Shown here: positions 62,070-64,000 of the stretch, one piece after another
Position numbering within the stretch: position 1 is the first letter of the stretch
Layout of the letters: each line of letters starts with the position of its first letter
Made by a program: the position numbers and the translations under genes
The notes under the pieces: model-generated
Databases searched by the model: none
What the model saw: only the letters and a program-made list of their open reading frames with translations
Told to the model about the DNA's origin: nothing
NCBI RefSeq assembly: GCF_003144535.1
Contig: NZ_PHFJ01000001.1
Span: 310,001 to 374,000 of the forward strand
From: Proteus penneri
GTDB taxonomy: Bacteria; Pseudomonadota; Gammaproteobacteria; Enterobacterales; Enterobacteriaceae
Length of the DNA: 64,000 nucleotides
Reading direction: 5' to 3'

Positions 62070-62265
62070 ACTTCCTCCGATATTCGATTTGAAAATTAAG
62101 CAAAAAGTAATATAAGAGATAAATAAGATTATTTATCTAGCACTCTACTAAGCTTATGGTTAATATAGCCACTTATTTATTTTTCACTTCTCTTTATTGT
62201 AGGTTGTTATTATGTAATACGCATTAAGGCACTGAAAGAATCGTGCAAATACAGAAAAATTAACT

Positions 62266-62322: not shown

Positions 62323-63027
62323 ATGAATAATCAATCACAAAAATATGATAGAACCTATCACTATCCTTTTTCACCAGGCACAACAAACGACGATCGTATA
62401 AATGCGCAATGGTGGCAGGATATTTGTCAAATAAAACAACTTATCCATACAGAAAAACTAGATGGAGAAAATAATTGCCTAAATAAAATGGGGGTTTTTG
62501 CGCGTTCGCATGCAACTCCAACGCAATCAGCGTGGACATCTCAATTGCGTCAACGTTGGCAAATGATGAAAAATGATTTAGGTGAATTAGATATTTTCGG
62601 TGAAAATTTATATGCCATTCATTCTATTGAATATGCACACTTAGAAGAATATTTTTATGTGTTTGCGGTTCGTTATAAAGATAAATGGCTAGGTTGGGAA
62701 GAAGTGCAGTTTTATGCTTCTTTGTTTGATCTTCCTACTGTGCCAGAAATTAAATTGCCTGAATGTCAGGATAAAACAGAGTTTGAAAATATGATTGTTT
62801 CACAAGCCAAAAAGGCAAGTTTTTTTCAATCTCAAGATGTTTTAACTCAAAAACTAAGCCCAATGGAAGGTATTGTTACACGAGATGCACAGTCATTTTC
62901 TTTAAATGATTTTTCTCATCGTGTTTTTAAATATGTTAGAAAAGACCATGTTAAAACAGATGTTCATTGGAAAAAAAATTGGCGGCGAGCCCCTTTAATC
63001 TGGGAAAAAACACAGGAGTCTCAATGA
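62323..63027 (+). CDS. RNA ligase (Rnl-type nucleotidyltransferase)
   Basis: 234 residues with the full motif set of ATP-dependent RNA ligases: motif I K45-L-D-G48 (lysine that takes AMP), Ia-like FARSHA (59-64), III around FGENLYAIHSIEY (92-104), IIIa FYVFAVR (111-117), IV E182-G-I-V and V K203-Y-V-R-K207. Joins RNA ends bearing 5'-phosphate and 3'-OH. The next gene, which would prepare such ends, overlaps it by four bases (ATGA). No strong ribosome binding site is seen before its ATG, but a perfect dyad lies just upstream. Confidence 0.85.
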   Translation: MNNQSQKYDRTYHYPFSPGTTNDDRINAQWWQDICQIKQLIHTEKLDGENNCLNKMGVFARSHATPTQSAWTSQLRQRWQMMKNDLGELDIFGENLYAIHSIEYAHLEEYFYVFAVRYKDKWLGWEEVQFYASLFDLPTVPEIKLPECQDKTEFENMIVSQAKKASFFQSQDVLTQKLSPMEGIVTRDAQSFSLNDFSHRVFKYVRKDHVKTDVHWKKNWRRAPLIWEKTQESQ

Positions 63028-64000
63028 TGCTTCATAAAAAACTACACACTGAAATGTCATGGGAACACCTTTGTGAACTGTATGATGAAATAAATGATAT
63101 GGCTGGTGTTATACAAGATCCTATTCATCATGCAGAAGGCGATGTGGCGATACATACACAAAGAGTAATCAATTCAGTGAAATCATTGCCAGAATATACG
63201 AGGCTAACTGAAAGAGAACAGCAAATTTTATGGATCTCGGCACTATTTCATGATGTAGAAAAACGCTCTACAACCCGGGAAGAAGAGGGACGTATTGTTT
63301 CACCGGGTCATGCACGTAAAGGTGAGCTAACAACGCGTCTTTTTCTATATAAAAAAGTACCTTTAAGCTTTGCTGATAGAGAGCAGATCGCTGCTTTAGT
63401 TCGCTTTCACGGTTTACCGTTGTGGGTGATGGATAAACCTGATCCTAAAAAAGCTCTGCTTGCTGCATCACAGAGAGTAGATTGCTATTTATTAGCATTA
63501 TTAGCTAAAGCTGATGTTTTAGGGCGAGACTGTGAAGATAAACCAGCTCTTTTTGATAAAATTGCGTTATTTACACTTTATTGTGAAGAGTTAAATTGTT
63601 GGCGTAGAGCTGCTCCATTTCCTTCAAATGATGCTCGTTTTCACTATTTTTATACAGACAGTAGTACGGATTGTAATTACGAGCCTTATCCTGAAAAAGG
63701 AAGTGAAGTGACAGTGTTATGTGGATTACCTGGTATGGGAAAAGATACCTTTATTCGCCAACATTGTGCAGATCTTCCGATTGTGAGTTTAGATGATCTC
63801 CGTCGCCAACATAATATTAAACCTGATAACAGAGATGCTAATGGTTGGATAGCACAGCAAGCAAAAGAACAAGCTCGTATATATTTACGAGAGCATAAAC
63901 CTTTTGTTTGGAATGCCACCAATATTACAAGAAAAATGCGAGATCAACTTATCTCTTTGTTTTATCGTTACAATGCAAAGATTACGTTGGTATATATTGA
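63024..64000 (+). CDS. HD phosphohydrolase-polynucleotide kinase fusion, 3' end cut off
   Basis: Open to the right edge (325 codons seen), starting at an ATG that overlaps the ligase stop, with AGGAG upstream. N-terminal HD domain: His44, H76-D77 (ALFHDVEK), H96, H129 and D164 (KADVLG), the usual metal-binding set. Then a P-loop kinase: GLPGMGKDT (234-242), LDDLRR and WNATNITRKMRDQL, typical of bacterial polynucleotide kinases. The HD part may remove 3' or 2',3'-cyclic phosphate while the kinase adds 5'-phosphate, making ends fit for the ligase. This is inferred from domain content and pairing. Confidence 0.84.
   Translation, partial: MMLHKKLHTEMSWEHLCELYDEINDMAGVIQDPIHHAEGDVAIHTQRVINSVKSLPEYTRLTEREQQILWISALFHDVEKRSTTREEEGRIVSPGHARKGELTTRLFLYKKVPLSFADREQIAALVRFHGLPLWVMDKPDPKKALLAASQRVDCYLLALLAKADVLGRDCEDKPALFDKIALFTLYCEELNCWRRAAPFPSNDARFHYFYTDSSTDCNYEPYPEKGSEVTVLCGLPGMGKDTFIRQHCADLPIVSLDDLRRQHNIKPDNRDANGWIAQQAKEQARIYLREHKPFVWNATNITRKMRDQLISLFYRYNAKITLVYI

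What the first reader, a model, noticed from the sequence alone, without database searches (positions are those of the whole stretch)
62323..64000. RNA ligase coupled to an HD-polynucleotide kinase: an RNA-repair operon at the window edge
The ligase has every catalytic motif (I, Ia, III, IIIa, IV, V), and the next gene, sharing ATGA with it, fuses a complete HD phosphohydrolase site to a P-loop polynucleotide kinase. End-healing plus end-sealing in one message is what is needed to mend RNA cut by ribotoxins such as anticodon nucleases, and E. coli K-12 has no such pair (it has RtcBA). The healing partner using an HD domain in place of the T4-type phosphatase is unusual and little studied in Enterobacterales.
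Basis: partly seen in the sequence, partly recalled or inferred. Interest (0 to 1): 0.82.

Follow-up and report, generated by a model that had tools for sequence, protein, structure and literature searches.

The report
RNA-mending gene pair in Proteus
Two overlapping bacterial genes look like a repair kit that trims and rejoins cut RNA; the same kind of kit is already known in Deinococcus, but it also turns up in nearly one in five complete E. coli genomes and keeps company with a known ribosome-repair system, which makes its role testable.

Summary
Confirmed. The window is Proteus. A 234-aa ATP-ligase (PF09414; motif residues invariant in 45 aligned relatives) overlaps by ATGA an HD-phosphohydrolase/polynucleotide-kinase (378 aa; the window holds 325). 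A terminator follows, so the unit has two genes. It is a new member of a known kind: the Deinococcus DRB0100/DRB0098 (ligase/HD-Pnk) unit. Caution: purified DRB0100 adenylated itself but joined neither RNA nor DNA.

New here: (1) 980 of 5,426 complete E. coli genomes hold at least 80% of the pair, between emrB and luxS in the three loci read; in K-12 MG1655 that site is empty. (2) It keeps company with the RtcB2-PrfH ribosome-repair module. In 295 genomes of the order, 14 of 17 with the pair have PrfH, against 15 of 278 others; in three genomes (two genera) all lie in one cluster. In E. coli, 949 of 981 carriers have rtcB2, against 1,740 of 4,445 non-carriers, but this is strongly lineage-structured. 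(3) The enterobacterial pairs group with large-phage pairs.

Best reading: an RNA heal-and-seal unit for RNase-damaged translation RNAs. Substrate and joining are inferred; DNA repair remains a live rival.

The parts
62323..63027 (+). ATP-dependent polynucleotide (RNA) ligase, nucleotidyltransferase domain only, 234 aa, DRB0100 type
   Evidence: (AlphaFold2 mean pLDDT 93.1)
62449..62472 (+). ligase motif I, T43-E-K45-L-D-G-E-N50; K45 is the residue expected to take AMP
   Evidence: aligns with DRB0100 K40, reported adenylated in PMC1997131 (passages)
62866..62940 (+). ligase motifs IV (E182-G183) and V (K203-Y-V-R206)
   Evidence: invariant in 45 of 45 rows
63024..64000 (+). HD-Pnk: HD phosphohydrolase fused to P-loop polynucleotide kinase; cut by the window edge, ends at window-equivalent 64160 (L002 5025-6161, 378 aa)
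   Evidence: (AlphaFold2 of the P. vulgaris copy, pLDDT 91.5)
63129..63515 (+). HD metal site: H36, H76-D77, H96, H129, D164
   Evidence: invariant in 18 of 18 rows; H76-D77 align with DRB0098 H81-D82
63723..63743 (+). kinase P-loop GLPGMGK (residues 234-240)
63024..63027 (+). ATGA overlap of the two genes
   Evidence: the same overlap follows from the coordinates of 8 of 8 named Proteus loci and is printed for E. coli L251
62200..62247 (+). upstream block nearly invariant in Proteus, with a dyad GGCAC...GTGC at 62228-62247; candidate promoter or operator, function unknown
   Evidence: 9 sequences; the only exact match of the pattern in the genome; with up to 2 mismatches 20 hits against 22 for the reversed-pattern control

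Best explanation
The two genes are one co-translated RNA end-healing and end-sealing unit. The HD domain removes 2',3'-cyclic or 3'-phosphate ends and the kinase domain adds a 5'-phosphate to 5'-OH ends, the ends left by metal-independent RNases. The small ligase takes AMP from ATP on K45, passes it to the 5'-phosphate and joins it to the 3'-OH. Its likely duty is to restore translation RNAs (ribosomal RNA, perhaps tRNA) cut by RNases of rival bacteria, phage defence or phages, as a second, ATP-driven sealing route beside the RtcB2-PrfH module. Shown here: genes, motifs, predicted folds, overlap, conservation, genomic company. Reported by others for the Deinococcus homologues: self-adenylation and 5'-kinase activity. 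Inferred: RNA as the real substrate, joining activity, and a working link to RtcB2-PrfH.
For: Catalytic residues invariant in both proteins. Ligase model (pLDDT 93) matches RNA ligases ahead of DNA ligases. Kinase part: profile matches Clostridium Pnkp kinase and T4 Pnk; Foldseek ranks mammalian PNKP and 6-phosphofructo-2-kinases first by E-value, with Clostridium Pnkp kinase 4jt2 at 2.5 A over 152 columns. HD-Pnk lies beside the ligase in 17 of 18 ligase-bearing genomes of the order, although the ligases belong to two distant clades. PrfH over its cut-off: 14 of those 17 against 15 of 278 others; by genus 7 of 10 ligase-bearing genera against 9 of 90; within genus g56, 6 of 7 against 2 of 9, p 0.02. 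In three genomes (two genera) the cluster reads rtcB2-prfH-phosphatase-like-ligase-HD-Pnk, with a proteasome-like gene added in one. E. coli: 949 of 981 carriers have the rtcB2 stretch against 1,740 of 4,445 non-carriers. A BrxL control: 8 of 242 genomes, one shared with each set. RtcB2-PrfH protects E. coli from colicin E3, which cuts 16S rRNA (PMC9223846, passages).
Against: DRB0100, 33% identical over 212 aligned columns, adenylated itself but joined neither RNA nor DNA, alone or with its operon partners; HD mutants H81A and D82E of DRB0098 kept 3'-phosphatase activity in that assay, which the authors thought might be a contaminant (PMC1997131, passages). The Deinococcus operon is induced by radiation, and a review says LigB is active as a ligase in complex with DRB0098 and PprA (PMC5128194, passages). 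In the window's genome the pair is not linked to rtcB2-prfH (contig 11 against contig 22), and rtcB2 there is interrupted. The E. coli association is strongly lineage-structured: in 60 spread rows, both genes in 23 of 26 rows whose rtcB2 stretch is at least 98.7% like Nissle's but in 2 of 32 less similar ones; the 2 other rows show the pair alone. At family level the PrfH association is weak (6 of 7 against 7 of 20, p 0.03). Three ligase/HD-Pnk genomes of the order have no PrfH (G105, G121, G292). RtcB2-PrfH did not protect against tRNA-cutting colicins E5 and D, so the link gives no support to a tRNA target. The pairing is looser elsewhere: a full HD-Pnk is found in the held DNA of only 8 of 80 phage ligase loci; ligase without HD-Pnk nearby in Rhodovulum and phage Phosso; about 8 kb apart in a Vibrio plasmid; no annotated ligase beside HD-Pnk in Sphaerospermopsis and Miltoncostaea.
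Confidence: 0.55

Rival explanations
1. DNA break repair: the pair heals and seals DNA ends, as proposed for the Deinococcus LigB operon.
For: DRB0098-0100 operon strongly induced by radiation (PMC1997131, passages); LigB reported active with DRB0098 and PprA, and ligB deletion said to lower damage tolerance (PMC5128194, passages citing others); a paper whose title, seen only in a reference list, says D. radiodurans HD-Pnk abets resistance to radiation and mitomycin C.
Against: DRB0100 disruptant fully radiation-resistant (PMC1978522, passages); no DNA joining by the purified proteins; model closer to RNA ligases than DNA ligases; company with RtcB2-PrfH. Ku or PprA was not searched for in Proteus.
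Confidence: 0.2
2. Phage-derived counter-defence cargo: the pair came from a large phage and serves to keep translation going against host or phage RNases, with no particular partner in the cell.
For: Proteus, G196 and E. coli ligases form one clade (99/98), joined with large-phage ligases in a 95/96 clade inside a viral radiation; AU tests reject holding the Proteus rows with the other cellular DRB0100-type rows (p 2.6e-7) and holding all viral rows apart (p 7e-4). HD-Pnk gives the same placement. Different chromosomal sites in Proteus, G196 and E. coli.
Against: Conservation in 19 of 20 Proteus genomes suggests a cellular use; cellular relatives were sampled thinly, so phage origin and direction are not settled; most phage ligase loci lack HD-Pnk nearby. 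It differs from the best reading mainly in origin, not chemistry.
Confidence: 0.15
3. The small ligase is not a strand joiner but an adenylyltransferase of RNA ends or of another molecule.
For: Nucleotidyltransferase domain only; DRB0100 adenylates itself without joining anything in the assays of PMC1997131.
Against: All residues of the joining class kept; coupling in the order with an enzyme that makes the ends a ligase needs.
Confidence: 0.1

Closest known systems
Deinococcus radiodurans DRB0100 / DRB0099 / DRB0098 operon (LigB, PARG, HD-Pnk)
   Same: Domain-only ligase (33% identity over 212 columns) and HD-Pnk (29% over 91% of the query) in one operon
   Different: D. radiodurans has a PARG (TIGR02452) gene between them; Proteus, E. 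coli and Deinococcus KNUC1210 do not
Runella slithyformis HD-Pnk (recalled; paper not held)
   Same: HD phosphoesterase fused to polynucleotide kinase, often in an operon with an ATP-dependent ligase, as recalled
   Different: Not compared here; no sequence fetched
RtcB2-PrfH ribosome-repair operon of E. coli
   Same: Same company in genomes; same kind of task proposed
   Different: RtcB2 joins cyclic-phosphate and 5'-OH ends directly; this pair would first have to heal them; Pfam and NCBIfam give no RtcB match to either protein
Large-phage Rnl2-family ligases, some fused to HNH (PMC7824862, passages)
   Same: Closest relatives found outside the enterobacterial clade, about 50-53% identity for full-length rows; some beside HD-Pnk; one HNH-like fused copy
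   Different: The Proteus ligase has no HNH part; most phage loci lack HD-Pnk nearby. That these phage rows belong to the paper's Rnl2 family is my inference.
Pnkp-Hen1 and Pnkp1-Rnl-Hen1 RNA repair complexes
   Same: Kinase domain related (TIGR04075 34.8 bits; 4gp7 E 1.5e-20)
   Different: Phosphatase is HD, not metallophosphoesterase (the latter recalled); far below the family cut-off of 750 bits

Membership tests
DRB0100/HD-Pnk type ligase-healing unit | PF09414 ligase consisting of the nucleotidyltransferase domain only | tested here: met
   95.6 bits against 27 over residues 39-205 of 234; DRB0100 is 210 aa and adenylation-domain-only in PMC1997131
DRB0100/HD-Pnk type ligase-healing unit | HD phosphohydrolase fused N-terminally to P-loop kinase, with catalytic residues | tested here: met
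   the Pfam HD model alone is under its cut-off
DRB0100/HD-Pnk type ligase-healing unit | Both genes in one transcription unit | tested here: met
   ATGA overlap, shared order, terminator-like site after the second gene; no transcript data
DRB0100/HD-Pnk type ligase-healing unit | PARG (TIGR02452) third gene | tested here: not met
   No room between the genes and no such gene next to them (by reading); also missing in Deinococcus KNUC1210, so probably not defining
DraRnl (DRB0094) / Rnl5 family | Sequence relation over the ligase domain | tested here: not met
   23 bits over 32 columns only; fold class shared with Naegleria Rnl
Bacterial Pnkp (TIGR04075) | Score over family cut-off | tested here: not met
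   34.8 against 750 bits
RtcB2-PrfH operon | Linked to rtcB2 and prfH | tested here: not met
   Not linked in the window's genome; linked in G031, G056, G025
RNA repair enzymes | Heals and joins RNA ends | not testable with these tools
   needs biochemistry

The most novel reading that the evidence does not exclude
The pair is the second, ATP-driven sealing arm of a two-armed ribosome-repair system: PrfH frees ribosomes with cut 16S rRNA, RtcB2 seals cyclic-phosphate/5'-OH breaks, and HD-Pnk plus the small ligase mend breaks whose ends RtcB2 cannot use. It is an accessory trait of about 18% of complete E. coli genomes and of 19 of 20 Proteus genomes searched, and was exchanged with large phages.
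Probability: 0.3. Interest if true: 0.72.

Novelty: new member of a known kind. Interest (0 to 1): 0.5.

Why it matters
What DRB0100-type ligases join is unsettled: one 2007 study saw self-adenylation but no joining, a review reports joining only with partner proteins. The finding that E. coli strains, among them Nissle 1917 and W, carry a pair at a site that is empty in K-12, and that the pair keeps company with RtcB2-PrfH, puts the question into laboratory E. coli with a known challenge (colicin E3).

Tried and rejected
Considered and rejected: DRB0094-type ligase; a longer operon to the right; a regulon sharing the upstream dyad (20 hits with up to 2 mismatches against 22 for the reversed control); structured RNA beside the genes (Rfam, 2 matches, both far under their gathering scores); tRNA genes in the window or L002 (0 found); PDB sequence relatives of the ligase (no meaningful match for the single sequence; one tRNA ligase at 7e-4 with the profile). 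The viral scan with the single HD-Pnk sequence found nothing; the alignment scan found 61 loci. A DNA search of E. coli with the G145 pair found nothing; with the Proteus pair it found 980 genomes.

Rows and samples left out of counts: the class sample (6 of 274) gave 4 ligases outside the order, of which only G390 has HD-Pnk within the 1.5-kb flank. The phylum sample (3 of 398 by single sequence: G000, G196, G025), the single-sequence order sample (6 of 295) and the 148-genome sample (9 hits) are not used. Of 80 viral ligase loci 64 entered the tree; two were short or split and 14 identical to others. The viral list holds 80 of 390 relatives. The HD-Pnk tree used 38 of 87 loci: partial matches, repeats, rows under 60 bits and most bacterial duplicates were dropped. 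The 18th ligase genome of the order (G042) has no HD-Pnk and is outside the 14-of-17 count; with it the count is 14 of 18.

Literature limits: the Runella and Deinococcus HD-Pnk papers and the 2016 RNA-repair survey by Burroughs and Aravind are not held, so I cannot say that the RtcB2-PrfH link is unpublished. The listings showed no paper whose title or abstract start mentions it. The passages seen of PMC6514570 name TPR and Pol-beta type genes beside PrfH-RtcB, and its main text has 0 occurrences of 'kinase' and 'phosphatase'; its supplement was not seen.

Full report
WHAT IS THERE. The window lies in a Proteus genome (G000, 3.77 Mb in 26 contigs; window = contig 11, 310001-374000; genus from named relatives). 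At 62323-63027 stands a 234-aa ORF, and from 63024, sharing ATGA, a second ORF that runs off the window. The genome completes it to 378 aa, ending at window-equivalent 64160. A terminator-like hairpin of 13 pairs follows at window-equivalent 64208-64237 (offset computed), then a convergent DUF4822 gene. So the unit has two genes. A divergent short-chain dehydrogenase lies upstream in the window and in 6 of the 8 named Proteus loci; the DUF4822 gene lies downstream in 8 of 8.

LIGASE. Pfam RNA_ligase 95.6 bits against a cut-off of 27. The motif residues are invariant in 45 of 45 rows; motif V reads K-x-V-R. AlphaFold2 on an alignment of window and the search for related loci sequences gives mean pLDDT 93.1. 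Foldseek against the PDB returns 35 chains at E<=0.001: Naegleria, archaeal, T4 Rnl2, trypanosome editing and fungal tRNA ligases, plus two chains of one Aquifex entry titled putative DNA ligase; recognised DNA ligases start at 1.6e-3. TM-scores are about 0.5, so this is a class assignment, not a close match.

HEALING ENZYME. HD residues (H36, H76-D77, H96, H129, D164) and kinase residues (G239-K240, D257, R260, R306, R339) are invariant in 18 of 18 rows of A4. The model (P. vulgaris copy) has pLDDT 91.5. By profile the kinase part matches Clostridium thermocellum Pnkp kinase and T4 Pnk, and the HD part resembles that of poly(A)-polymerase-type entries. By fold the kinase part matches mammalian PNKP and 6-phosphofructo-2-kinases first, then Clostridium Pnkp; the HD part gave no listed fold match.

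CLOSEST KNOWN PAIR. In Deinococcus radiodurans the hits lie in a run ligase (210 aa), TIGR02452 protein, HD-Pnk. I matched these to DRB0100, DRB0099 and DRB0098 of PMC1997131 and PMC11833690 by order and product. PMC1997131 (passages): DRB0100 adenylates K40, which aligns with K45 here, but no DNA or RNA joining was seen, alone or with its partners; DRB0098 phosphorylated 5'-OH ends. PMC1978522 (passages): a DRB0100 disruptant is fully radiation resistant. PMC5128194 (passages): a review says LigB is active with DRB0098 and PprA. PMC11833690 (passages): the PARG removes ADP-ribose from RNA and DNA 5'-phosphates. The kind is therefore known and its substrate is unsettled.

DISTRIBUTION. Proteus: 19 of 20 genomes; the one without (G010) is in about 290 contigs. 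Order: 18 of 295 with the profile, 17 of them with HD-Pnk beside the ligase. The ligases fall in two distant clades, so in this order HD-Pnk is the constant partner. E. coli: 981 of 5,426 complete genomes match, 980 holding at least 80% of the 1,817-base pair, at emrB-luxS in the three loci read. K-12 MG1655 has emrB and luxS 63 bases apart; the rest of its genome was not searched by name. Proteins are 61% (ligase) and 51% (HD-Pnk) identical to Proteus over the aligned columns.

COMPANY WITH RTCB2-PRFH. In G031, G056 and G025 the order is rtcB2, prfH, (a proteasome-like gene in G025), a low-molecular-weight-phosphatase-like gene, ligase, HD-Pnk (in G031 rtcB2 TIGR03073 526 bits, PrfH 248.9 and phosphatase-like 27.7 are over their cut-offs). 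PrfH over cut-off occurs in 29 of 295 genomes of the order: 14 of 17 pair genomes against 15 of 278 others (Fisher 1.4e-13; species are not independent). By genus 7 of 10 ligase-bearing genera against 9 of 90 (6.6e-5), by family 6 of 7 against 7 of 20 (0.03). Within genus g56, 6 of 7 against 2 of 9 (0.02; the nine non-carriers were counted by me from the listing). BrxL, a sporadic defence gene, occurs in 8 of 242 and overlaps each set once; it is one small control. In E. coli the rtcB2 stretch tested (300 bases) occurs in 2,689 genomes and the union with the pair in 2,721, hence 949 of 981 carriers against 1,740 of 4,445 non-carriers. This is heavily lineage-structured: in the 60 spread rows, both occur in 23 of 26 rows with a Nissle-like rtcB2 stretch and in 2 of 32 others, and 2 rows have the pair alone. 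So the E. coli figure adds few independent events. In the window's own genome rtcB2-prfH lies on another contig and its rtcB2 is split into two open frames; a full-length match to PF01139 is present in 15 of 20 Proteus genomes but not in this one.

ORIGIN. The Proteus, G196 and E. coli ligases form a clade (99/98) that joins large-phage ligases in a 95/96 clade, within a viral radiation. Forcing the Proteus rows with the other cellular DRB0100-type rows is rejected (p 2.6e-7), as is holding all viral rows apart (p 7e-4); the groups were named after seeing the tree, so the p-values are indicative. HD-Pnk gives the same placement (96/94). Four of the five phage rows in the sister group have a full HD-Pnk in the held DNA; the fifth contig ends 386 bases after its ligase. 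Two partial or split phage ligases score higher over shorter stretches (60-62%) and were not in the tree. The pair sits at different chromosomal places in Proteus, G196 (after genes that by eye read like dnaB, alr and an aminotransferase) and E. coli. Exchange with phages is likely; direction is unproved because cellular relatives are thinly sampled.

MECHANISM. Cyclic-phosphate/5'-OH breaks are healed by HD-Pnk to 3'-OH/5'-phosphate and sealed by the ligase with ATP. Shown: residues and predicted folds. Reported elsewhere for homologues: adenylation, kinase. Inferred: RNA substrate, joining, ribosomal target. RtcB2-PrfH protects E. coli from colicin E3 but not from tRNA-cutting colicins (PMC9223846, passages); a sister route for ends that RtcB2 cannot use would explain the company. 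DNA repair remains possible.

LIMITS OF THE PAIRING. Outside the order the two genes are often apart: a full HD-Pnk in 8 of 80 phage ligase loci; ligase alone in the Rhodovulum and Phosso stretches; about 8 kb apart in a Vibrio plasmid; HD-Pnk without an annotated ligase beside it in Sphaerospermopsis and Miltoncostaea.

VERDICT. Real, ordinary in kind, under-noticed in Enterobacterales as far as the papers held show, with a testable new link.

Noticed in passing
L210 (G000 contig 22, 48271-49915): In the window's own genome the rtcB2 frame beside prfH is split into two open frames, and no full-length RtcB-family match was found (15 of 20 Proteus genomes have one). The ligase/HD-Pnk pair may be the only intact RNA-sealing route found here, unless this is an assembly error.
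   Followed up: partly
L048, L049, L058 (G689, G355, G042): A different RNA-ligase context in three families: in L058 an ATPase ORF (AAA_15/AAA_21, AbiEii-like), then a 180-aa ORF beginning like a PIN nuclease (by eye; no Pfam match), then a ligase, without HD-Pnk; L048 and L049 look alike by eye. Possibly another RNA damage-and-repair cluster.
   Followed up: no
L044 8100-13938 (G025): The rtcB2-prfH-ligase-HD-Pnk cluster also holds a proteasome-beta-like gene, and upstream a Tpt1/KptA RNA 2'-phosphotransferase-like gene, a NADAR gene and a nicotinate phosphoribosyltransferase-like gene.
   Followed up: partly
L042 3317-6865 (G292): Ligase, HD-Pnk, then a second PF09414 ligase (236 aa) and a 275-aa ORF that by eye reads like a phosphoesterase (no NCBIfam match): two ligases with one healing enzyme.
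   Followed up: no
L024 5587-6681; L033 4593-5672: Ligase with an N-terminal HNH-like extension (by eye) beside HD-Pnk in a 462-kb phage and in a Pseudomonas plasmid, the latter with reversed gene order.
   Followed up: partly
window 62228-62247: Dyad GGCAC...GTGC in a block almost invariant across nine Proteus sequences upstream of the pair, also in the two loci where the upstream gene differs; the only exact match in the genome.
   Followed up: partly
NZ_OL790811.1 and NZ_OL790812.1: Two 4.08-Mb Proteus mirabilis records are filed as plasmids in PLSDB but by size look like chromosomes; they carry the pair at 82.5% and 80.4% protein identity.
   Followed up: no
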